Notes under the pieces: model-generated
The model's input: the letters and a program-made list of their open reading frames with translations, nothing else
What the model was told of the DNA's origin: nothing
Databases searched by the model: none
In this document: piece after piece, positions 25,566 through 35,926 of the stretch
Layout of the letters: every line of letters starts with the position of its first letter
Numbering within the stretch: the first letter of the stretch is position 1
NCBI GenBank assembly: GCA_029558905.1
Contig: JAKQCX010000015.1
Coordinates: 124,001 to 188,000, forward strand
DNA length: 64,000 bases
Direction: 5' to 3'
From: Pseudomonadota bacterium
GTDB taxonomy: Bacteria; Pseudomonadota; Gammaproteobacteria; Burkholderiales; Thiobacillaceae
Program-made: the position numbers and the translations under genes

Positions 25566-27530
25566 TCAGGCTCCCCGAGCGACCGCGCCGGACGGCACGG
25601 CCAGCTTGCGCAGGGCGATACGGTAGCGTCGATCGGAGGCGGCCAGAAAACCGCCTGCCACCAATAGCAACGCGCCGATCCACAGCCAGTTGATGAAGGG
25701 TTTGTAGAACACCCGTACGGCCCAGGCCTGGCCCTGATCATCCAGGGGCTCGCCCAAGGCCACATAGATGTCGCGGAAGAAGCTGGGATGGATGGCGGCT
25801 TCGGTCATGGGCATGCCGGAGGCGTTGTAGACACGCTTTTCGGGGTGCACCACGGCGATTCTCCTGCCGTCCTTGCTGACTTCCACCGTGCCGCGCGCGG
25901 CACGGTAGTTGGGTCCGGGGCGTTCCGTCGCGCCCCGGAAGGTGAAGGTGTAGCCCGCCAGCTCGGTGAATTCGCCCACGTTCATGCGCACATCCCGTTC
26001 CATCTCGTAGTTGGCCACCACGGTGATGCCCGCCACCCCCCAGGCCAGCCCCAGGTGGGCCAGCTGCATGCCCCAGAAGGCCCGGGGCAGGCTGCCCAGG
26101 CGCGCACCATGCTTCAGGCGGTCACGGAAGCCCAGCAACACGGTCAGCAGAATCCAGATGGCCAGGGCAAACCCGAGCGTCGCCCAGGGATTGAAGCCCT
26201 TCAGGGTCAGGGGCAGCAGGAAACCGGTGACCACGGCCACGGCCAGGGCCCACTTCAGGCGCTGGAACATGTCCGGCAGGCTGGCTTCCTTCCAGCGCGC
26301 CAGGGGCCCCACGCCCACCAGGAACAGCATCGGCGCCATCACCGGCACGAATACCGCGTTGAAATAGGGAGGGCCTACGGAGATCTTGCCCATGCCCATG
26401 GCGTCCATGAACAGGGGATAGAGGGTGCCCAGCAGGACGGAGCCCAGTGCCGCCAGCAGCACCACGTTGTTGGCCAGCAGCATGGCCTCCCGGGAAAACC
26501 AGGTAAAGGCACCGCCGGTCAGCATCTTGGGGGCACGCCAGGCATAGAGCATGAGGGATCCGCCAATGACCACCGCCAGGAAGCCCAGAATGAAGCTGCC
26601 ACGGGCCGGATCCGTGGCAAAGGCATGCACCGAGGACAGTACGCCGGAACGCACCAGGAAGGTCCCCAGGAGGGAGAGGGAGAAGGTGATGATGGCCAGG
26701 AGTACGGTCCAGGCCTTGAAGGCGCCCCGCTTTTCCGTCACCGCCAGGGAATGGATCAGGGCCGTGCCCGCCAGCCAGGGCATGAACGAGGCATTTTCCG
26801 TGGGATCCCAGAACCACCAGCCACCCCAGCCCAGCTCACGGTAGGCCCACCAGGATCCCAGGCCGATGCCCAAGCTCAGGAAGGCCCAGGCCACCGTGGT
26901 CCAGGGCCGGGACCAACGCGCCCACGCGGCATCCAGCTTGCCGGAGGACAGGGCGGCGATGGCAAAGGCGAAGGCCACGGCGAAACCCACATATCCCATG
27001 TAGAGCATGGGCGGATGCAGGATCATGCCCCAATCCTGCAGCAGGGGATTCATGTCACGGCCATCCATGGGTGCTGGCACCAGGCGCGTGAACGGGCTGG
27101 AGGTAGTCAGGATGAAGGCCAGAAAGCCCGCCGAAACCAGGCCCATGACGCCGATCACCCGCGCCACCATGTCGTCCGGCAGGTGGCGGGAGAACACGGA
27201 CACGGCCGCGGTCCAGAACGCCAGAATCATCACCCACAGGAGCATGGATCCTTCATGCGAGCCCCATGTGGCGGTGAAGCGGTAGATCTCCGGTAACTGG
27301 GAGAAGGAGTTGCGCGCCACGTTCTCCACGCTGAAGTCATTGCTCAGGAAGGCATAGGCCAGGCAGCCGAACGCCAGCGCCACGAACACGAACTGACCCT
27401 GTGCCGCCGGACGGGCCACCGCCATGAGGGTGAGATTGCCACGCTGCGCTCCCGCCAATGGCAGGATGGCCTGGGTCAGCGCCAGCACCAGGGCGACGAT
27501 CAGGGCGAAATGGCCAAGTTCAGGAATCAT
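25566..27530 (-). CDS. ccmF: Heme lyase subunit CcmF
   Basis: A 654-residue polytopic membrane protein of the heme-handling family and the core of the cytochrome c heme-ligation complex. The WWD-type motif is in ELGWGGWWFWDPTENASFMPWL, and many hydrophobic segments and conserved His residues flank it. The C-terminal periplasmic domain (about 490-620) and last membrane segment are intact. The length equals that of E. coli CcmF. Upstream, 159 bases separate it from ccmE, the longest gap inside this operon, and they hold a strong hairpin. Confidence 0.97.
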   Translation of the reverse strand: MIPELGHFALIVALVLALTQAILPLAGAQRGNLTLMAVARPAAQGQFVFVALAFGCLAYAFLSNDFSVENVARNSFSQLPEIYRFTATWGSHEGSMLLWVMILAFWTAAVSVFSRHLPDDMVARVIGVMGLVSAGFLAFILTTSSPFTRLVPAPMDGRDMNPLLQDWGMILHPPMLYMGYVGFAVAFAFAIAALSSGKLDAAWARWSRPWTTVAWAFLSLGIGLGSWWAYRELGWGGWWFWDPTENASFMPWLAGTALIHSLAVTEKRGAFKAWTVLLAIITFSLSLLGTFLVRSGVLSSVHAFATDPARGSFILGFLAVVIGGSLMLYAWRAPKMLTGGAFTWFSREAMLLANNVVLLAALGSVLLGTLYPLFMDAMGMGKISVGPPYFNAVFVPVMAPMLFLVGVGPLARWKEASLPDMFQRLKWALAVAVVTGFLLPLTLKGFNPWATLGFALAIWILLTVLLGFRDRLKHGARLGSLPRAFWGMQLAHLGLAWGVAGITVVANYEMERDVRMNVGEFTELAGYTFTFRGATERPGPNYRAARGTVEVSKDGRRIAVVHPEKRVYNASGMPMTEAAIHPSFFRDIYVALGEPLDDQGQAWAVRVFYKPFINWLWIGALLLVAGGFLAASDRRYRIALRKLAVPSGAVARGA

Positions 27531-27630
27531 GGGGATCTCCTTGTGGGGTGGCGTGCGGTTCAGGGCAGGGCGGCCTGGATGGATTGCCGTTGCAAAGTCT
27601 TCCGTGCCTGGCGGCAGACCTGGTACGCCC

Positions 27631-27661
27631 GTCGCGCCATGGGCCCGCCCAATGGCGCGAC
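27631..27661. repeat. Long inverted repeat between ccmE and ccmF
   Basis: A 14-base arm (GTCGCGCCATGGGC) and its complement, with one bulged base, are separated by two bases, giving a very stable RNA hairpin in the ccmE-ccmF intercistronic gap. No T-run follows on the minus strand, so it is not a standard terminator. A role in mRNA processing or stability is inference. Confidence 0.75.
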
Positions 27662-27689
27662 CCGACGGTCGCGCAAGTCAGGCCCGCGC

Positions 27690-28139
27690 TCATTGCGGCA
27701 CCACGGTTTCCTGCGCCTTGGCGGCCTGCTCCAGTGCGTGTGCCGCCTCGGGCGGCATGTAATTCTCGTCGTGCTTGGCCAGCACCTGCGTCGCGGTGAA
27801 CAGGCCGTCGCTCCCCATGCGGCCCTCCGCCACCACGCCCTTGCCCTCCTTGAACAGGTCGGGAAGGATGCCCTTGTAGGTGACGGGAATGGATTTGGCC
27901 GTATCGGTCACCACGAAGCGCACGCTCAGTCCGTCCGCCTCCCGCTTCAGGCTGCCATCCTCCACCAGACCACCGATGCGGAAGGCACGGTCCGTGGGCG
28001 CCTTGCCTGCGTGCACCTCGGTGGGCGAGAAAAAGAACACCAGGTTGCTGCGGAATGCGTTCAGCACCAAGGCGGCGACGATAGCCAAGCCGGCCAGCGC
28101 CAGGAGTATGACCACCAACTTCTTGTGTCGCGATTTCAT
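27690..28139 (-). CDS. ccmE: Heme chaperone CcmE
   Basis: A 149-residue membrane-anchored periplasmic protein that binds heme covalently through a His and passes it to CcmF. The N-terminal anchor is [19 protein letters not shown], followed by an OB-fold domain with the segment [19 protein letters not shown]. The heme-binding His lies in [12 protein letters not shown]. The ATG at 28139 overlaps the ccmD stop as ATGA; longer in-frame reading has no family similarity and overlaps ccmD. Confidence 0.96.
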
Positions 28140-28309
28140 TGCTCTTCCCATTGCAACATGCGCCGCAGGCGGCGGCGGGTGTGCGCGGCCGCCCGGCGCA
28201 ACAACATGACTTCCACCCCTACACATGCGGCGGTGGCACCGAATGAACCCCAGACATAAAAGCCATAGCCACCCATGGCCCAGAAGTCGGACCAGCTTGC
28301 CCATTCCAT
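28136..28309 (-). CDS. ccmD: Small membrane protein CcmD
   Basis: A 57-residue protein found by reading the strand between ccmC and ccmE. It starts [20 protein letters not shown], has one membrane segment ([20 protein letters not shown]), and then a basic cytoplasmic tail rich in Arg. The Tyr-containing N-terminus and basic tail are typical of CcmD, which releases holo-CcmE from CcmABC. It starts one base after the ccmC stop and overlaps ccmE by ATGA. Confidence 0.92.
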
Positions 28310-28310
28310 T

Positions 28311-29045
28311 TCAAGTTTCCTTCTGCAGAATCGCCTTCACCCACTCGGTCTGTCGCTCGCGTTCCAGGATGATGCGGCGTACCCGCACCAAGACTACGGC
28401 GATGGTGTAGAACCAGGCGGCGAAGGCCATGACCAGCATACCCTGGAGCATTATGGCGGCCATGGATGGGGCCTTGGTCAGACTCACCGAGGCACCCTGG
28501 TGCAGGGTGTTCCACCACTTCACCGAGAAATAGATGATGGGTACATTGATGACGCCGATCAGCGTCAACAGGGACCCGGCCCTGTCGCCACGCCTGATGT
28601 CGTCGATGGCCGCCCACAGGGCGATGATGCCCACATACAGGAACAGTAGGATCAGCTCCGAGGTCAGGCGCGCGTCCCATACCCACCAGGCCCCCCACAT
28701 GGGTTTGCCCCACAAGGCGCCGGTCCACAGTGCGACGAAGGTGAACATCGCGCCGGTAGGGGCCAGGGCCCGTGCCATCATGAAGGACAGGCGGGTGTTG
28801 AAGGCCAGACCTATGGCACCCCAGAAGGCCATGACCAGGTAGATGAACATGGACATCCAGGCCGCGGGCACGTGGATGAAGATGATGCGGTAGGCCTCGC
28901 TCTGCTGAAAGTCCGTAGGCGCCAGGAAGAAGGAGATGTAGAGTCCCCACAGTGCCAGGATGCCCGCGCCCCAGGAAAACCAGGGGATCAGCCTGCCGGC
29001 CAGGTGATAGAAGTGTGCGGGAGAGGCGTAAGTGTAGAGATTCAT
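28311..29045 (-). CDS. ccmC: Heme exporter subunit CcmC
   Basis: A 244-residue, six-segment membrane protein that loads heme onto CcmE. The tryptophan-rich motif WGAWWVWDARLTSEL (WWD domain) and the flanking conserved His residues (for example in IFIHVPAAWMSM) are present. I chose the ATG at 29045, which overlaps the ccmB stop as ATGA; the open frame extends far upstream but reads against ccmB. Length and topology are normal. Confidence 0.97.
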   Translation of the reverse strand: MNLYTYASPAHFYHLAGRLIPWFSWGAGILALWGLYISFFLAPTDFQQSEAYRIIFIHVPAAWMSMFIYLVMAFWGAIGLAFNTRLSFMMARALAPTGAMFTFVALWTGALWGKPMWGAWWVWDARLTSELILLFLYVGIIALWAAIDDIRRGDRAGSLLTLIGVINVPIIYFSVKWWNTLHQGASVSLTKAPSMAAIMLQGMLVMAFAAWFYTIAVVLVRVRRIILERERQTEWVKAILQKET

Positions 29046-29710
29046 TCCAGGGACACTCGTAAGGCCGCAGCCGCGATCCAGGGTGCAATCATAAATGACA
29101 GCACGAGGAATGCGCCCAGCAAAGACAGATGCGCTTCGGCTCCGGTTCCCGCCATCACCCCATCCACAGCCCCCGCGCCAAAGATCAGGGCGGGCACATA
29201 AAGGGGCAGAATGAGCAGGGTCAGCAGGATCCCACCACCACGCAACCCCAGCGTCAGGGCAGCGCCCACACCGCCCAGCAGGGACAGGATGGGGGTGCCC
29301 AGGAGCAGCGAGATTTCCAGGGTGACGATGGCGTCGGTGGGCAGGTTGAACTGCAGTCCCAGTACGGGCGCGATCACCAGCAGCGGAATGCCGTAGATCA
29401 GCCAGTGCGCCAGGGACTTGCCCAGCACCAACAGCACGGTGGGCCCGGACGACAGGAGCATGTGCTCCAGGCTGCCATCGCGATGATCGTCGGCAAACAG
29501 ACGGGACAGCGACAGCAGGGAGGCCAGCGTCGCCGCCACCCACAATACGCCAGGGCCGATGCGCGCCAGCATTTGCGGCTCCGGCCCCACACCCAGGGGG
29601 AACAGGCTGGCCACCATGACGAAAAAGAACTGGGCGATGAGCCAGTCACCACGACGGCGCGCCGCCAGGGTCAAATCACGCCACAGAACGGCCTGAAGAA
29701 ACCGATGCAT
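29042..29710 (-). CDS. ccmB: Heme exporter permease CcmB
   Basis: A 222-residue membrane protein with six segments, the permease partner of CcmA in the ABC complex that drives heme release from CcmE. Family features include the N-terminal RRRGDWLIAQFFFVMVASLFPLGVGP (split across the first segment) and DDHRDGSLEHMLLS in the cytoplasmic loop. It overlaps ccmC by four bases and follows ccmA after 15 bases. Confidence 0.95.
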   Translation of the reverse strand: MHRFLQAVLWRDLTLAARRRGDWLIAQFFFVMVASLFPLGVGPEPQMLARIGPGVLWVAATLASLLSLSRLFADDHRDGSLEHMLLSSGPTVLLVLGKSLAHWLIYGIPLLVIAPVLGLQFNLPTDAIVTLEISLLLGTPILSLLGGVGAALTLGLRGGGILLTLLILPLYVPALIFGAGAVDGVMAGTGAEAHLSLLGAFLVLSFMIAPWIAAAALRVSLE

Positions 29711-29725
29711 CAGCGGCTCACGCTC

Positions 29726-30376
29726 TCAGGCCGGTCCCGGTATGGCGACATTACCCACCAGCAGGCGCTGCACGGGAATGCCTTCCAGGTTCAGGGCCTG
29801 GTGTGTGGTCGCCACCACCAGCCCGCCTGCCAGCAGATGGTCGCGAATCAGTTCTTCCATGAGTGCTACCGCATGCACGTCCAGACCCGTGAGCGGCTCA
29901 TCCAGGATCCAGAGGGTCGCCCCGGCCAGCAGGAGCGCGGCCAGGGCCACGCGCCGTCGCTGGCCGAAGGACAGCACGCGACAGGGCAGGTCCAGGCAGC
30001 GTGACAACCCCATGCGTTCCAGCATCGCCGTGGCCAGTCCAGGATTGAAGGCACGGCCTTGCAGTCCCTCGGCAAAGCGCAGGTTTTCCACAGGGTTCAG
30101 GTCATCCTTCACGCCATTGGCATGCCCCAGATACATCATCTCGGCATGGTAAGCCGCGCGCTGACCTGTGATGGACGCACCGCGCCAGTGCACTTCGCCC
30201 GCCTCCGGGCGCGCCAGCCCCGTCAGCAGACGCAACAGGCTGGTCTTGCCCTGGCCATTGCCGCCTTGAACCAGCAACAGTTCGCCTGCCCGCACAGTGA
30301 AATTCAGCCCCTTGAACAGGAGTCGGTCACCCCGCGTACAGGCCAGGTCATGGACGGAAAGGAGGGATGTGGTCAT
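29726..30376 (-). CDS. ccmA: Heme exporter ATP-binding protein CcmA
   Basis: A 216-residue ABC ATPase and the first gene of the ccm operon. The Walker A VQGGNGQGKTSLLRLL, signature-like LSFGQRRRVALAALLL and Walker B LWILDEPLTGLD are present, and the size is the minimal CcmA size. I prefer the ATG at 30376 (MTTSLLSVHDL); an earlier in-frame start at 30394 is possible. A strong terminator lies about 70 bases upstream, so the ccm operon must have its own promoter in the 30377-30443 stretch. No convincing -35/-10 pair was identified there. Confidence 0.96.
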   Translation of the reverse strand: MTTSLLSVHDLACTRGDRLLFKGLNFTVRAGELLLVQGGNGQGKTSLLRLLTGLARPEAGEVHWRGASITGQRAAYHAEMMYLGHANGVKDDLNPVENLRFAEGLQGRAFNPGLATAMLERMGLSRCLDLPCRVLSFGQRRRVALAALLLAGATLWILDEPLTGLDVHAVALMEELIRDHLLAGGLVVATTHQALNLEGIPVQRLLVGNVAIPGPA

Positions 30377-30443: not shown

Positions 30444-30470
30444 AAAAAAGGGGGCGGGATGTCCGCCCCC
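30444..30470 (-). terminator. Rho-independent terminator after the octaheme nitrite reductase gene
   Basis: On the minus strand an 8-base perfect GC stem (GGGGGCGG / CCGCCCCC) with a 5-base loop is followed by six T, 20 bases after the stop codon. It separates the cytochrome island from the ccm operon. Confidence 0.93.
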
Positions 30471-30490
30471 TGTCGGCTGCGTGAAGCTGC

Positions 30491-32233
30491 TTACTTGGCA
30501 GCCACCTTGGCCTTCATCTTGGCCAGTTCCTCACGCACCATCTTGATGCCCGCCTGGGAGGCGTCGATGGAGCGGGTCAGGGACTCGCGTGCCACGTCGG
30601 GGTTGTGGAAACCGTCGGAGTTCTCGGCCGTCCACCACTCCCAATACAGGGTGGCGTCGTACTGCAGATCCTGCAATTTGTCCATGACTTCCTTGCTTAC
30701 GCCGGCATCCTTGGCCTTCAGGATATGGTCGATGTACTCGGCAAGCCAGAACTCGGCCTTGGTCATCTTGCCACGGATGTAGTTCTGCACCGCTTCCAGA
30801 TGGTACTTGGCGTCTTTCTCGGTCCACTCCTTGTGGCAGCTCAGGCAGGCCTCACCCAGGCGATAGCGCGGCGACATCTGCAGGTGTGAGGTGGTCACCT
30901 TGCCGTTCGCGGCCTTCTTCTTGGGCATGTGGCAGTCCTTGCACTCCACGCCTGCGCGCTCATGCTTGGAACCCCAGAAGGTCTCGAACTCGGGGTGCTG
31001 GATCTTGGGCAGCAGGGCGCCGGTGGAGGCGTGCTTGAAGTCCTTGAACTTGTATTGCTCGGTCATCACCTTCTTGTAGCCCAGCACGTTTGTCCAGGGG
31101 AACAGGTTGGTGCGTGGGTCCGCCATGGTGATCATCTTCTGGTCAGGATCCGGGGTCATCTTGACCGTGTTGTTCGGCCCGGCGCAGTCGAACCCAACGC
31201 CACAGTTGTATTCCACGTGACACTGGGCGCACATGAGGTTGGAGTCGGACCTGCTCAGGATGCCGATGGCGCGGAAGGGCTGACCGTCACGCTCGTACAC
31301 CACCTTGGTCATGGTGGTCTTCTGGCTCTTCACCGCGTCCTGGGGGTAGGTGCCCATTTTGCGATCCACCACGGCCTCGATCAGCGCGTCGCGCACCACG
31401 CGCGGCCCGGTCGAGTGCGGATCGTGGCACATGAAGCAGTTCAGCGGATGTTTCATGGCACGGGCGAACTCCACGGGCTTGGAGGTGCGATCCCACTTGG
31501 CGTTGGGGTTCTTGTCACCCTTATAGGCCCAGTCCAGGATGTGGTCCTGTGTCTTGCAGTTCATGCACACCGGGTTCACGGCGGCGGCCGTCTGACGCAT
31601 GAAGAGCTTCTGGTCGGAGGTTTCCGGTTCCCGATCCACGATCACGTTCCAGGCGTTGTTGGCGGCAAGCTCGGCCTTGTTGACGTAGGTCCAGTCCTTG
31701 AACTGCATGCGGCCGCCAAAGGCGCGGTCCACCACCCACTGGTCCACCAGCATGAAGGCATGCGAACGTGGCTCCGCGTGCTCCTTGGTGAAGCCATAGC
31801 CTTCCATCAGCTTGTCGAACAGCGGCGAGCGGCTGGTATAGCGCGCCTTTTCCACCCGTGCATGGGACTCGTAGTTGGTCTGCACGAAGGAGTTGTATTG
31901 CTCCACGTGACAGGTGGCACAGGCCCGGTGATCGGTATTGGTCACCGGGCGGGTACCCATCTTCGAGCCCTTGGCGGTCTTCAGGTGCTCCTCAGCATCA
32001 TGGCAATGGGCGCAGTTCACCGTGGCGTGACGGCCCGAGGCGTGGAACTCCTCGATGTTGTCGTGGCACGCATAGCATTTCTTGGCGTCTACGGGCTGCA
32101 CCGGGGGCGCCTTTTCAGGGGCCGGCGCCGGCATCTGCGGCCTGGGGATGTCCACAGCCGCCTGCGCGCCGATGGCCAGCAGGGCTGTTGCCAACCCCAT
32201 CGCCATTCGGCTCAACACTGATCCAATCTTCAT
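30491..32233 (-). CDS. Octaheme cytochrome c nitrite reductase (ONR/TvNiR type)
   Basis: A 580-residue exported multiheme cytochrome; the signal peptide ends near residue 25. There are eight heme-binding motifs: CXXCH at residues 53, 74, 105, 266, 335, 431 and 463, and a CXXCK (CMNCK) at 223-227. Heme 4 with a Lys ligand is the hallmark of the octaheme nitrite reductases described from Thioalkalivibrio, which reduce nitrite to ammonium in six-electron steps. Residues Tyr342-Asn-Cys344 just after heme 6 match the Tyr-x-Cys pair cross-linked in that enzyme. It has an AAGGAG SD, follows fccB after 140 bases and ends in a strong terminator. HAO-type enzymes lack CXXCK. Activity is inferred. Confidence 0.9.
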
Positions 32234-32269
32234 GGTTATCTCCTTGCTGATTCTTGGGATGGTGGGTGA

Positions 32270-32291
32270 GCGCCCGGGGTTGCCCGGGCGC
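32270..32291. repeat. Stable hairpin between fccB and the octaheme reductase gene
   Basis: Perfect 9-base arms (GCGCCCGGG / CCCGGGCGC) around a 4-base loop lie 37 bases before the reductase ATG. No T-run follows, so it is not an intrinsic terminator. It could protect or separate segments of one fccAB-reductase transcript (inference). Confidence 0.75.
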
Positions 32292-32373
32292 ACCAACCGT
32301 GGCTAAGACCGGCCTGCTTCTCGTGTACTCGTCATAGGCATTCCTCCGGGTAAGGGACTACATGCACGACACG

Positions 32374-33753
32374 TTACAGAAACGCATCCGCCATCACGTT
32401 GCGCAGCCAGCCGTCGGCGTACTCGGCCTCGAGCTTGCGGTAGATGGGCGGCACGGGAGAGCCATCCGGCATGGTCACCGGGGATACGCCACTGCCCTCG
32501 GGGATGTACTTGAAGGTGCCGTTGACCACCCGGTACAGGTGTGCCACGGAAATGCCGTAGTCGTCTCCCACCACGCTATAGCAGGTGTTGGCATAGTAGG
32601 GCTGGGGCGTGGGCAGGCCGTTGACCTTCGCCACGATGGCCGCGGCCGCCACCTTGGCCTGGGCCATGGCGATGTGCGCCGACTTGGGCATGTCGAAGGC
32701 CGCGTTGGGGTTGCCGTAGGTGGACATCTCGCCCGCCACGCAGCTGTCTCCCACGACATAGACGTTGGGATCCACGGCGCTGGCCATGTCCATGGGCTGC
32801 ACCTTGCACCAGCCCTTCTCGAAGTTGTTGCCCGTGCTGCCCGCGAGCCCGGTGGTGACGGCGATCCTGCCCGCCTTGTGCGGCGGGATGATGTTGAGCA
32901 CGTCCGCCTTTACGTCGACGAAGTCGGAGGACACGGTCTTGGTCTTGGCGTCCAGTTTGTTGATGAAGCCGCCTTCGGCCCCCTTCAGCCATTCGATCAT
33001 GCCGTTGGTGTTGAGGCCTTCCTTCTCCCAGCCGTACATCTTGGCCCAGGCCTGGTTGAACAGGCCTTTCTTGGAGTGGCTGTCGTTGCCGTCCAGGATG
33101 ATGACCTTGCTCTTCTTCTTGCCGTGGTGCTGGAAGTAGTTGGCCACCAGGGAGGCCCGCTCGTAGGGGCCGGGGGGGCAGCGGAAGGGGCCCTTGGGCA
33201 CGACGATGACGAATACCCCGCCATCGGGCATGGCTTCCAGCTGCTTCTTCAGCAGCAGGGTCTGCGGGCCGGCCTCCCAGGCGTGGGGAATGTCGTTGAT
33301 GAGGGATTCGGAGTAGCCCTCGATGGTGTCGTAGTGGAATGTGATGCCCGGAGACATGACCAGGGCATCGTAGGACAGCGTGTTGCCACCCTTGGTGGTG
33401 ACGGTCTTCCTGGCGCGATCCACGCCGGTGACCAGGTCCTGCAGGACGTTCACCCCACGCTTCTTCAGACCGTCATAGCCGACCTGCAGGGTCTTGAGGT
33501 CGCGGTGGCCCACCAGCGCCTCGTTGGACAGGGGGCAGGAGGTGTACACAGGATTGGGCTCGATGAGGGTGACGTCGATACCGGCATCCAGGCGCTTGAT
33601 GTATTTTGCGGCGGTGGCGCCGGCGTAGCCGCCGCCGATGACCACCACCTTGGCCTTGGCCGCGGCACGCGCAATGGAGGGGAAGCTCAGGGCAGTGGCA
33701 GAGGAGGCTGCGGCAGCGACCTTGATGAAATTGCGACGGTTGATCTGGCTCAT
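32374..33753 (-). CDS. fccB: Flavocytochrome c sulfide dehydrogenase, flavoprotein subunit
   Basis: A 459-residue periplasmic FAD protein that oxidises sulfide to sulfur or polysulfide and passes electrons to the FccA hemes. A Tat-type leader (NRRNFIKVAAAA) leads to an FAD-binding GxGxxG (VVVIGGGYAGATAAKYI). The redox-active Cys pair lies in GPFRCPPGPYERA and NTCYSVVGDDYG, as in Allochromatium FCSD, and a second FAD contact in YVVGDSCVAGEM. The C-terminal FCSD domain is complete. It follows fccA after 15 bases, so the two subunits are cotranscribed. SoxF-type enzymes are close relatives; no sox genes are in the window. Confidence 0.95.
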   Translation of the reverse strand: MSQINRRNFIKVAAAASSATALSFPSIARAAAKAKVVVIGGGYAGATAAKYIKRLDAGIDVTLIEPNPVYTSCPLSNEALVGHRDLKTLQVGYDGLKKRGVNVLQDLVTGVDRARKTVTTKGGNTLSYDALVMSPGITFHYDTIEGYSESLINDIPHAWEAGPQTLLLKKQLEAMPDGGVFVIVVPKGPFRCPPGPYERASLVANYFQHHGKKKSKVIILDGNDSHSKKGLFNQAWAKMYGWEKEGLNTNGMIEWLKGAEGGFINKLDAKTKTVSSDFVDVKADVLNIIPPHKAGRIAVTTGLAGSTGNNFEKGWCKVQPMDMASAVDPNVYVVGDSCVAGEMSTYGNPNAAFDMPKSAHIAMAQAKVAAAAIVAKVNGLPTPQPYYANTCYSVVGDDYGISVAHLYRVVNGTFKYIPEGSGVSPVTMPDGSPVPPIYRKLEAEYADGWLRNVMADAFL

Positions 33754-33768
33754 GGTCTTTTTCCTCTG

Positions 33769-34344
33769 TTACTTGCTCTGGGCACCGTAGTACTGGGCGG
33801 CGGGCTGGACCTGATCCGCGCCCAGCTTCTTGGCGGCATTGGTCATCTTCCGGTGGGGCATGGCAAAGCCTGGATCACGGTACTTCATCAGTTCCAGCTC
33901 CAGATACTTGGCCCACTGTCCGTTCAGGTGAGGGGTGTCGTCTTCTTCGGATGCGCCGGTCTTGCCGTGGCAGTTCTCGCAGGCCTCGCTGGCGTCCTTG
34001 CCCTTCAGCAGTACATCCGCGGCCACGCTCTGGGGCTGGGGCTTCCATGGCAGCTTGGCGTAGTAGCCGGCCAGGGCGGCAATCTCATCTTCCGAGTAGC
34101 CCTTGATGAGGCGCGTCATGTTGGCGGAGGCGCGCTTGCCGGTCTTCCATTCCATCATGATGTTCTTGAGATAGGCCTCGGGCAGGCCCGCGATGGAGGG
34201 CATGCTCAGACCCACGCTGGTGCCACCCGTACCATGGCAGTTGTCACAGGTCATCGCCAGGCCCCTGATGTTGTCCACAGCCAGGGCACCCGTCGCCGCG
34301 CACAGCCCAGCGACACTTAATACACTCAGGACGGCTCTCTTCAT
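33769..34344 (-). CDS. fccA: Flavocytochrome c sulfide dehydrogenase, diheme cytochrome subunit
   Basis: A 191-residue exported diheme cytochrome c. The signal peptide ends near ALA; heme sites are CDNCH in the first half and CENCH in the second, each followed by a class I cytochrome fold (for example MPSIAGLPEAYL and the Met-ligand region). The two-domain build equals the 21 kDa FCSD subunit of purple sulfur bacteria. The ATG at 34344 follows an SD-like GGAG; the longer open frame enters the promoter region. It lies directly before fccB. An FNR-like box and a possible -10 lie upstream. Confidence 0.92.
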   Translation of the reverse strand: MKRAVLSVLSVAGLCAATGALAVDNIRGLAMTCDNCHGTGGTSVGLSMPSIAGLPEAYLKNIMMEWKTGKRASANMTRLIKGYSEDEIAALAGYYAKLPWKPQPQSVAADVLLKGKDASEACENCHGKTGASEEDDTPHLNGQWAKYLELELMKYRDPGFAMPHRKMTNAAKKLGADQVQPAAQYYGAQSK

Positions 34345-34418
34345 TGTCTCCTCCAGGAAGATCGGTTGCCGGGTAGGGAAGGTATCGTGCGACCACGTAC
34401 ACGCCGGGCCGTTGGTCC

Positions 34419-34461
34419 ATAGTACTGATGGCCCAATGGGTATAACCTTGACGCCCATCAA
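34419..34461 (-). promoter_or_regulatory. FNR/ANR-type box with class II spacing before fccAB
   Basis: The 14-base box at 34448-34461 reads TTGATGGGCGTCAA on the minus strand, matching TTGAT-N4-ATCAA at nine of ten positions. A possible -10 (TACTAT, 34419-34424) lies 23 bases downstream, which would put the box near -42, the class II activator position. The predicted start is about 70 bases before fccA. Confidence 0.7.
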
Positions 34462-34544
34462 AAATTCATGAATATCAGATGTCTGCATCCACAAGATGCG
34501 ATGGCAATGCAGACATGCCGGGGAGATTCCCGGCCAGGGCGGGC

Positions 34545-35207
34545 TCAGGGTACGGGCGGCACCAGGCGCGACATGTAGTCGCTCACCGCTTCCAGGTCCT
34601 CATCGGTGTAGCCCTTGAGGATGCGCACCATGCCCGGATTGGCGTTGCGACGTCCCTGGTCACGGCTCTCCCGGGATTCGCGCAGCAGATAGGCCTCGTG
34701 TTGCCCGGCCACGCGTGGGTAGAACTTGTCGCCGTCGCCTTCCCCGTACTTGCCGTGGCAGCCGGCGCAATCCCGCTGGTAGAGCTGTCGTCCCAGTGCG
34801 AGCATGCGGCCGTTGCCCTTGCCATTGGTGTCGGGTACCGGCAGGCTGCGCAGATAGGCGGCGATATGCGCGATGGCCTCTTCCGGCACGACCTCGTCGG
34901 AGATGAAGGGGTGCATTCTGGGGCTGTCTCGCCGACCCGAACGCACATCCAGCATCTGTTTCATGATCACGGTGGCATGCTGGCCCGCCAGTTGGGGATA
35001 GCCGGCTTCGGCCTTGCCGGAGGCATCGGCGCGATGGCAGCCGCGGCAGAGGCCATAGGTTTCCTTGCCTTTGGCCGGATCGCCTTCCTTCGCCAGCAGA
35101 CGAATGACGTCCGGATTCGCGTCCGCCATGGGCCTGCTGTATTCCGCGGCGTGGACAGACGGGGCCAACAGGGCCATCCACAGCATGGACATCATCGTGG
35201 CCTTCAT
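34545..35207 (-). CDS. Diheme c4-type cytochrome (second of a tandem pair)
   Basis: A 220-residue exported diheme cytochrome with motifs CRGCH and CAGCH, each in a c4-like half that ends with the pattern AGQH....(M/L)... and a conserved Met region (DSPRMHPF, NPGMVRIL). Cytochromes c4 shuttle electrons in the periplasm, often to terminal oxidases or reductases. The N-terminus from ATG 35207 is a signal peptide (TMMSMLWMALLAPSVHA). It follows the other c4 gene after eight bases, so both come from one transcript. A 200-base gap with its own FNR-like promoter then precedes fccA. Confidence 0.88.
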   Translation of the reverse strand: MKATMMSMLWMALLAPSVHAAEYSRPMADANPDVIRLLAKEGDPAKGKETYGLCRGCHRADASGKAEAGYPQLAGQHATVIMKQMLDVRSGRRDSPRMHPFISDEVVPEEAIAHIAAYLRSLPVPDTNGKGNGRMLALGRQLYQRDCAGCHGKYGEGDGDKFYPRVAGQHEAYLLRESRESRDQGRRNANPGMVRILKGYTDEDLEAVSDYMSRLVPPVP

Positions 35208-35215
35208 CGCATTCC

Positions 35216-35833
35216 TCACTTCAAGCTCGCCATGTATTCGGCCACGGCCTCGGCTTCTTCCGGCGTCAGGCGCTGGGCGATGGTGCGCATCACCCTGATT
35301 CCGTTGTTGCGCTGGCCACTGGCATATTGCGCGATCTGGTCCAGGGTGTAGGGGACATGCTGGCCCGCCAGCCGGGGAAATTTTTTCGATCCCTCGCCGT
35401 TTTCCTCGTGACATCCTTCACAAGAGGGCACGCCGGACCTGTCATTGCCTTCCAGATAGATGCGTTGGCCCAGTGCCAGCAGCCCGGGTTTGTTCACCGT
35501 GCCCGGCACAGGTGTCTGGCGCGCGAAATAGGCCGCCAGTTGCTGCATGTCTTGCGTGGAGAGCGCAGACATGATGGGCGCCATCGCTTCGTTCTGGCGC
35601 CGCCCCTCCTTGTAGTCCTGCATTTCACGCAACAGATAGGATGCCTGCTGGCCCGCCAGGTTGGGGAATTCGGCCGTGGCGCTGTTGCCATCCATGCCAT
35701 GGCATCCGCTGCAGGATCGTTCAACCAGGACCTCGACCGCCTGTGCAGCGTCCCCGGTGACCATGGCCGTGTAGCCCATGCCCAAGGTCAGGAGCGTTGC
35801 CGCAATCCGTGCTTTCCATACTCTCGGGGCCAT
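35216..35833 (-). CDS. Diheme c4-type cytochrome (first of a tandem pair)
   Basis: A 205-residue exported diheme cytochrome with heme motifs CSGCH and CEGCH, and the c4 pattern FPNLAGQQASYLLREMQDYKEG followed in the second half by FPRLAGQHVPYTLDQI. The signal peptide spans about the first 32 residues. It differs clearly from the next gene product, so the pair is not a recent duplication. It is the promoter-proximal gene behind a perfect FNR-type box. The likely role is electron transfer between the sulfide dehydrogenase, the reductase and oxidases (inference). Confidence 0.88.
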   Translation of the reverse strand: MAPRVWKARIAATLLTLGMGYTAMVTGDAAQAVEVLVERSCSGCHGMDGNSATAEFPNLAGQQASYLLREMQDYKEGRRQNEAMAPIMSALSTQDMQQLAAYFARQTPVPGTVNKPGLLALGQRIYLEGNDRSGVPSCEGCHEENGEGSKKFPRLAGQHVPYTLDQIAQYASGQRNNGIRVMRTIAQRLTPEEAEAVAEYMASLK

Positions 35834-35912: not shown

Positions 35913-35926
35913 TTGATATGCATCAA
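35913..35926 (-). promoter_or_regulatory. Perfect FNR/ANR-type box before the c4 cytochrome pair
   Basis: TTGAT-ATGC-ATCAA on the plus strand (TTGATGCATATCAA on the minus strand) is a full match to the FNR/ANR consensus. It lies 80 bases before the first c4 ATG, between that gene and the convergent-free 3' end of the PBP7-like gene. A possible -10 (TTTAAT, 35869-35874) would place the box near -58, not an ideal distance, so the core promoter is uncertain. Confidence 0.7.

What the first reader, a model, noticed from the sequence alone, without database searches (positions are those of the whole stretch)
30491..35833. Cytochrome island that could couple sulfide oxidation to nitrite ammonification
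An octaheme nitrite reductase with the diagnostic CXXCK heme lies directly after the fccAB sulfide dehydrogenase genes, with two c4-type electron carriers just upstream and the whole ccm heme-attachment operon just downstream. Seen: gene order, heme motifs, flavin and redox-Cys motifs. Known: FCSD oxidises sulfide, ONR reduces nitrite to ammonium. Inferred: electrons from sulfide reach nitrite through c4. I know of no described operon joining these two enzymes.
Basis: partly seen in the sequence, partly recalled or inferred. Interest (0 to 1): 0.8.

Follow-up and report, generated by a model that had tools for sequence, protein, structure and literature searches.

The report
Sulfide dehydrogenase–nitrite reductase operon
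In sulfur-oxidising bacteria related to Thiobacillus, the genes for an enzyme that takes electrons from sulfide appear to share one regulated operon with an enzyme that turns nitrite into ammonium, which suggests, but does not yet prove, that the two reactions are wired together.

Summary
The genes are as described: an octaheme nitrite reductase (ONR; TvONR matches at 732 bits) follows a flavocytochrome c sulfide dehydrogenase (fccAB). The linkage is real: 31 of 32 close ONR loci with readable upstream DNA have fccB next to onr. It is more than synteny: FccB and ONR trees conflict both ways (AU p 1e-4 and 1e-8), so the FCSD beside onr changed lineage more than once while the slot stayed filled; ONR-linked fccA has an FNR/DNR-type box in 26 of 30 cassettes against 4 of 28 with another or no partner; a terminator-like hairpin follows onr in 41 of 63 loci and none of 32 fccB-onr gaps has one; in a Thioalkalivibrio family a different fccAB stands head to head with onr (3 of 3 readable). 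Corrections: ccm lies behind a terminator and holds the genome's only detected CcmF; the c4 pair is not conserved in this place. New: a leader ORF plus hairpin in the fccB-onr gap, and sister fccAB cassettes followed by napAB, a pentaheme cytochrome or a PhsA-like enzyme. Sulfide-to-nitrite electron flow is the best reading but undemonstrated; direct coupling would conserve no energy, so detoxification or an electron sink is likelier than respiration.

The parts
35216..35833 (-). c4a: diheme c4-type cytochrome
   Evidence: Two CXXCH; Pfam Cytochrom_C
34545..35207 (-). c4b: diheme c4-type cytochrome, 8 nt after c4a
   Evidence: Two CXXCH; Pfam Cytochrom_C
35913..35926 (-). FNR/DNR-type box upstream of c4a (10 of 10)
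   Evidence: no -10-like hexamer at the class II spacing; box upstream of c4a in 3 of 10 related rows
34448..34461 (-). FNR/DNR-type box upstream of fccA (9 of 10)
   Evidence: 26 of 30 ONR-linked fccA upstreams, this one included
34419..34424 (-). -10-like hexamer TACTAT, 38 nt from box start
   Evidence: TACTAT or TACCAT at that place in 16 of the 22 loci shown, this one included
33769..34344 (-). [quoted passage not shown]
   Evidence: Two CXXCH; general cytochrome c families; directly before fccB
32374..33753 (-). [quoted passage not shown]
   Evidence: Pfam FCSD_central and FCSD-flav_bind; cysteines aligned with Cys42, Cys161, Cys337 of 3vrd (counted by me)
32303..32335 (-). 10-codon leader ORF (MTSTREAGRS) with Shine-Dalgarno sequence
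   Evidence: an ATG mini-ORF in 19 of 32 fccB-onr gaps, shuffled mean 2.4, maximum 8
32261..32298 (-). GC hairpin between leader ORF and onr, without T-tract
   Evidence: single-sequence fold; covariation weak
30491..32233 (-). onr: octaheme nitrite reductase, heme 4 CXXCK
30449..30471 (-). intrinsic terminator after onr
   Evidence: terminator-like in 41 of 63 loci after onr, 0 of 201 stretches inside onr
25566..30376 (-). ccm cytochrome c maturation operon (ccmA to ccmF), separate unit
   Evidence: CcmA over its NCBIfam cut-off; ccmF the only one found in the genome; other ccm genes named translations

Best explanation
fccAB and onr form one operon, switched on by an FNR/DNR-type regulator under low oxygen or nitrogen oxides, that makes a periplasmic sulfide-to-nitrite electron pathway. 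FccB oxidises sulfide to sulfur or polysulfide; FccA hemes pass electrons, directly or through c4-type cytochromes, to ONR, which reduces nitrite (and hydroxylamine or NO) to ammonium. Donor and acceptor are both periplasmic and no quinol-oxidising partner was found, so direct coupling would release about 0.6 V without building proton motive force (recalled potentials). I therefore think its main job is to remove nitrite, NO or hydroxylamine together with sulfide as an electron sink, beside a NirS-like route. Shown: identities, conserved linkage, operon-like architecture, promoter box, terminator, tree conflict. Inferred: electron route, substrates in vivo, regulator, detoxifying role.
For: ONR close to TvONR with CXXCK heme 4. 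FccB with FCSD domains and conserved cysteines. fccB within 600 nt upstream of onr in 33 of 59 readable loci, and 31 of 32 with ONR at least 62% identical; 19 of 19 in the 61-genome set for ONR of 65% or more with readable upstream DNA (by coordinates). ONR data reject FccB clade i as one clade (p 1.25e-4); FccB data reject an ONR clade of seven (p 1.1e-8). FNR-type box in 26 of 30 ONR-linked fccA upstreams against 4 of 28 class-1 cassettes with another or no partner (Fisher 2e-8, overstated because loci are related). Terminator-like hairpin after onr in 41 of 63 loci, none in 32 fccB-onr gaps. Different fccAB head to head with onr in three genomes of a Thioalkalivibrio family. No NapC/NrfH-family protein found. 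NarG- and NapA-like genes, so nitrite is probably made.
Against: No expression or biochemical data. FccB copies without onr beside them exist, also in ONR-bearing genomes. Relatives share a wider block (PBP7, an HflK/stomatin-like gene, ccm), so loci are not independent. The tree conflict does not say which gene moved. In G032 fccAB is followed by ccmA, its 50% identical ONR being on another contig. L028 has onr behind PBP7 with fccAB about 5 kb upstream. 26 readable ONR loci have no fccB within 600 nt, mostly in other groups. Four ONR-linked fccA lack the box (L033, L034, L050, L065), and the head-to-head gaps have none. 10 of 31 loci with fccB beside onr show no terminator-like hairpin after onr (my count). 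The c4 pair is not conserved in place. The genome is 89.8% complete, so absence of NapC is not certain, and NrfCD was not searched.
Confidence: 0.58

Rival explanations
1. Shared regulation without direct wiring: FCSD and ONR are induced together in sulfidic, nitrate-rich, low-oxygen water, but ONR draws from the general cytochrome c pool (bc1 plus other sulfur-oxidising enzymes), where sulfide electrons are one source among several.
For: The window has c4-type carriers behind their own FNR-type box; the genome has four FccB matches, dsrA and SoxA/SoxB-like genes named by eye. ONR occurs without an fccAB neighbour in other groups.
Against: A pooled supply does not explain why the slot before onr holds FCSDs of several lineages or why Thioalkalivibrio-family onr sits beside a different fccAB.
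Confidence: 0.25
2. Mostly neutral neighbourhood: c-type cytochrome genes gather near ccm, and vertical inheritance keeps the block.
For: PBP7, an HflK/stomatin-like gene and ccm often keep their places too; G032 has fccAB next to ccm without onr.
Against: Tree conflict, ONR-specific FNR-type box, terminator between onr and ccm, head-to-head arrangement in another family.
Confidence: 0.08
3. ONR here acts mainly on another substrate (sulfite, hydroxylamine, NO or peroxide), with FCSD as donor or as scavenger of sulfide that ONR makes from sulfite.
For: Thioalkalivibrio ONRs also reduce hydroxylamine, sulfite and hydrogen peroxide (passage of PMC5433712).
Against: FNR/DNR-type box and nitrate reductase-like genes in the genome fit nitrogen oxides; a sulfite-sulfide cycle would yield nothing (inference).
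Confidence: 0.09

Closest known systems
Octaheme nitrite reductase of Thioalkalivibrio nitratireducens (TvONR, 2zo5) and T. paradoxus
   Same: Eight hemes, CXXCK at heme 4, 732-bit match over nearly the whole protein
   Different: In a Thioalkalivibrio family onr is divergent from a different fccAB and followed by a CcmF-like gene; here onr is downstream of fccAB in one direction and a terminator precedes ccm
Flavocytochrome c sulfide dehydrogenase of Allochromatium and Thermochromatium (1fcd, 3vrd)
   Same: FCSD domains, diheme FccA, conserved cysteines
   Different: Those pass electrons to soluble cytochrome c (recalled); I know of none in an operon with a nitrite reductase
nrfABCD and nrfHA operons (nitrite ammonification from quinol)
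   Same: CXXCK cytochrome c nitrite reductase making ammonium (passages of PMC12285233)
   Different: Here no NrfH/NapC-family protein was found and FCSD stands beside the reductase
Thiocyanate dehydrogenase loci of Thioalkalivibrio flanked by fccAB (PMC5328954, passages)
   Same: fccAB next to another periplasmic redox enzyme
   Different: Partner is a thiocyanate-oxidising enzyme, not a nitrogen-oxide reductase

Membership tests
Octaheme nitrite reductase (ONR) | Eight heme motifs, fourth CXXCK | tested here: met
   Script count
Octaheme nitrite reductase (ONR) | Full-length similarity to TvONR | tested here: met
   732 bits over query residues 43-569
Octaheme nitrite reductase (ONR) | Active-site residues of TvONR: Arg131, Lys188, Glu302, Tyr303, Cys305, Lys358, Gln360, His361 | tested here: met
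   Identical in the alignment (numbering counted by me; the residue list is recalled; the Tyr-Cys link is in a passage of PMC12285233)
Octaheme nitrite reductase (ONR) | Nitrite to ammonium activity, hexamer | not testable with these tools
   Needs protein
Flavocytochrome c sulfide dehydrogenase | FCSD central and flavin-binding domains | tested here: met
   148 and 67 bits, over their cut-offs
Flavocytochrome c sulfide dehydrogenase | TAT signal on FccB | tested here: inconclusive
   TAT_signal 20.6 bits, below its 22.7 cut-off
Flavocytochrome c sulfide dehydrogenase | Diheme FccA encoded next to FccB | tested here: met
Flavocytochrome c sulfide dehydrogenase | Flavin-linking Cys42 and redox Cys161/Cys337 | tested here: met
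   Aligned (counted by me); roles recalled
Flavocytochrome c sulfide dehydrogenase | Sulfide oxidation by this paralogue | not testable with these tools
   Needs protein
Quinol-linked nitrite ammonification (nrfHA type) | NapC/NrfH quinol dehydrogenase | tested here: not met
   PF03264: 0 matches in G000 (genome 89.8% complete)
Quinol-linked nitrite ammonification (nrfABCD type) | NrfCD | not tested
   No search made
FNR/DNR regulon | TTGATNNNNATCAA box at class II distance | tested here: met
   for fccA (consensus and spacing recalled)
FNR/DNR regulon | Crp/Fnr-family regulators in the genome | tested here: met
   4 of 5 matches over the PF13545 cut-off; two of the three printed show an ExxSR helix, the fourth was not read. 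Which acts here is unknown

The most novel reading that the evidence does not exclude
Class-1 fccAB in the Thiobacillus family is a plug-in electron-input module: separate copies head cassettes with ONR, NapAB, a pentaheme cytochrome or a PhsA-like molybdoenzyme, so that sulfide electrons go straight to periplasmic terminal reductases without the quinone pool. Together the Nap and ONR cassettes would make a wholly periplasmic, non-energy-conserving route from sulfide plus nitrate to sulfur plus ammonium.
Probability: 0.3. Interest if true: 0.8.

Novelty: new variant of a known kind. Interest (0 to 1): 0.62.

Why it matters
Sulfide-driven nitrite ammonification decides whether fixed nitrogen stays in sulfidic water or is lost as N2, yet the enzymes that link the two halves in sulfur oxidisers without Nrf are, as far as I know, not established, and neither is the in vivo electron donor of octaheme nitrite reductases. 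A conserved, FNR/DNR-marked fccAB-onr operon names a candidate donor and gives exact parts to test; the head-to-head version lies in a family that includes cultured Thioalkalivibrio.

Tried and rejected
Considered: MccA-type sulfite reductase or HAO; rejected because the fourth motif is CXXCK and the protein matches TvONR nearly end to end. Considered: ccm dedicated to ONR; weakened by the terminator, by its holding the only ccmF found, and by FNR-type boxes before only 3 of 44 ccmA rows, two of them the same gene. In L198 the onr-adjacent CcmF is nearer the window's CcmF (about 70%) than that region's other CcmF is (59%), so a NrfE-like origin is possible but untested. Considered: c4 pair as conserved operon member; not supported (FNR-type box before 3 of 10 related c4a rows from 9 loci). 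Rfam and tRNA scans of the window were empty. The sigma-70 scan found no promoter. RNAalifold on 14 of the 19 mini-ORF gaps gave a weak consensus (-3.4 kcal/mol, 4 of 10 pairs with a both-side change, covariation term about 0), so the hairpin is seen in single sequences but its covariation is not established. A fixed mini-ORF pattern matched 7 of 178 loci: too strict. The NirS-like matches are Pfam only; NCBIfam named none of the three pieces sent at E 1e-20. No structure was predicted and no metagenome was scanned.
Full report
Five minus-strand genes lie at 30491-35833 as described. Script counts give eight heme motifs in the last one, the fourth CMNCK, and two each in FccA and the two c4-type proteins. 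The octaheme protein matches TvONR (2zo5) at 732 bits over residues 43-569; counting along that alignment, TvONR Arg131, Lys188, Glu302, Tyr303, Cys305, Lys358, Gln360 and His361 are all identical (residue list recalled; the Tyr-Cys link is in a passage of PMC12285233). FccB has the FCSD domains and the cysteines aligned to Cys42, Cys161 and Cys337 of 3vrd (roles recalled).

It has NarG- and NapA-like genes (pieces of the proteins, just under or under the whole-protein cut-offs; a 983-residue NapA-like frame), PF02239 (NirS-type) matches on contig C12 (NCBIfam named none of three pieces at E 1e-20), NorCB-like and SoxA/SoxB-like genes named by eye, dsrA over its cut-off and four FccB matches. 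One CcmF, one match in the ONR search and no NapC/NrfH-family match were found. So nitrite is probably made and may have a second exit, and no dedicated quinol dehydrogenase for a periplasmic nitrite reductase was seen.

Linkage. Of the 70 loci, 59 have readable DNA upstream of onr (11 are edges or fragments); 33 of the 59 have fccB within 600 nt on the same strand, 31 of 32 when ONR is at least 62% identical. The exception, L028, has fccAB about 5 kb upstream. The 26 without are mostly other groups by title (Rhodoferax, Propionivibrio, Nitrospirae, Thermodesulfobacteriota). In the 61-genome set, 19 of 19 ONR genes of at least 65% identity with readable upstream DNA have fccB beside them (compared by coordinates); pieces at contig ends were left out (G006, G013, G019 and a second piece in G029), and ONRs of 45-50% identity (G032, G055) have none. 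The order with both c4 genes on the same strand was seen in none of the 70 loci.

More than synteny. Relatives share a larger block (an HflK/stomatin-like gene, PBP7, ccm), so these counts are not independent. Three tests bear on that. First, FccB next to onr falls into several FccB clades while the ONR tree interleaves them. Holding FccB clade i together on ONR data is rejected (AU p 1.25e-4), and holding an ONR clade of seven together on FccB data is rejected (p 1.1e-8); each group was named from the other protein's tree. Starred branches of the ONR tree force at least three changes of the clade i label. Which gene moved is not told, but an FCSD stayed in the slot. Second, 26 of 30 ONR-linked fccA genes have an FNR/DNR-type box (at least 9 of 10) within 260 nt (misses L033, L034, L050, L065). 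Class-1 cassettes with another or no partner have it in 4 of 28 (none 2 of 14, NapA 0 of 4, pentaheme 0 of 6, ccmA 0 of 1, PhsA-like 2 of 3); class-2 cassettes 0 of 7; 3 of 3 with unreadable downstream DNA have it and were left out (Fisher 2e-8, overstated because loci are related). In 16 of the 22 loci shown, the box is followed by TACTAT or TACCAT 38 nt from its start, the spacing of a class II activated promoter (recalled). Third, in the family of a genome titled Thioalkalivibrio sp. (47 genomes) the three readable ONR loci (L197, L198, L200) have a different, 42-44% identical fccAB head to head with onr, about 0.8 kb apart; three other loci run off their contigs and fragments in G107 were not followed. 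Those gaps hold no FNR box.

Architecture. A terminator stands at 30471-30449. By one script, 41 of 63 loci have a terminator-like hairpin within 200 nt after onr (21 of 31 of those with fccB beside onr, my count), against 0 of 201 stretches of the same length inside onr; none of 32 fccB-onr gaps has one. So the unit probably ends after onr and ccm is separate. In the 140-nt gap lies a 10-codon ORF with a ribosome site. 19 of 32 gaps have an ATG mini-ORF (17 of 9-12 codons, 14 of exactly 10), mononucleotide-shuffled mean 2.4, maximum 8, often M-x-D-[AT]-R ... D-V. A GC hairpin follows (covariation weak). I saw no such mini-ORF, by eye, after the 24 readable FccB copies without onr. It accompanies onr with FccB of clades i, ii and iv, so exchange breakpoints may lie upstream of it. 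A role in setting the FCSD:ONR ratio is a guess.

A wider pattern. Among 47 class-1 FccB copies (498 bits or more) in the 61-genome set, the next same-strand gene is onr in 19, a pentaheme cytochrome in 6, napA in 4, a PhsA-like molybdoenzyme in 3, ccmA in 1, none of my query genes in 12, and unreadable in 2 (coordinates; loci read). NapA of L143 and L160 passes the NCBIfam cut-off (1321 and 1324 bits against 904); those of L154 and L155 are 86-88% identical to it. FCSD in this family thus often heads a cassette with a periplasmic redox enzyme; the published Thioalkalivibrio case is thiocyanate dehydrogenase (PMC5328954, passages).

Mechanism. The most likely function is sulfide-dependent nitrite reduction under low oxygen or nitrogen oxides, electrons passing FccB -> FccA -> (c4) -> ONR. 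Because both ends are periplasmic, the reaction would consume periplasmic protons and conserve nothing unless electrons pass through bc1, so I favour detoxification or an electron sink over respiration. A shared cytochrome c pool is the main rival. The genome has four Crp/Fnr matches over the cut-off; two of the three printed have an ExxSR helix and no N-terminal cysteine cluster and look DNR-like (my reading).

Literature. No paper in the library holds both 'octaheme nitrite reductase' and 'flavocytochrome c sulfide dehydrogenase'. Listings (partly seen) and passages of 12 papers showed no description of the joint locus; supplements and subscription papers were not seen. PMC6382920 (passages) reports five fccAB copies each in T. 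nitratireducens and T. paradoxus, the two ONR sources, and no conserved fccAB surroundings in a comparison that included Thiobacillus denitrificans.

Noticed in passing
window 32261-32335: 10-codon leader ORF followed by a GC hairpin at the fccB-onr junction; an ATG mini-ORF occurs in 19 of 32 such gaps.
   Followed up: partly
L143, L154, L155, L160: fccAB directly followed by napA-napB, in L143 and L154 also by a pentaheme cytochrome and a MauG-like diheme protein.
   Followed up: partly
L144, L153, L157: fccAB followed by a PhsA-like molybdoenzyme (886 aa in L153) of unknown substrate.
   Followed up: no
L145, L146, L147, L158, L159, L170: fccAB followed by a pentaheme C554-like cytochrome of about 500 aa.
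   Followed up: no
L197, L198, L200: In a Thioalkalivibrio family a different fccAB is divergent from onr across about 0.8 kb without an FNR box.
   Followed up: partly
L150 (G032): fccAB followed directly by the ccm operon with no onr between; its ONR (50% identical) is on another contig.
   Followed up: no
L069, L075, L088: c4-like gene pair on the opposite strand downstream of onr-ccmF, with no fccAB seen in the locus.
   Followed up: no
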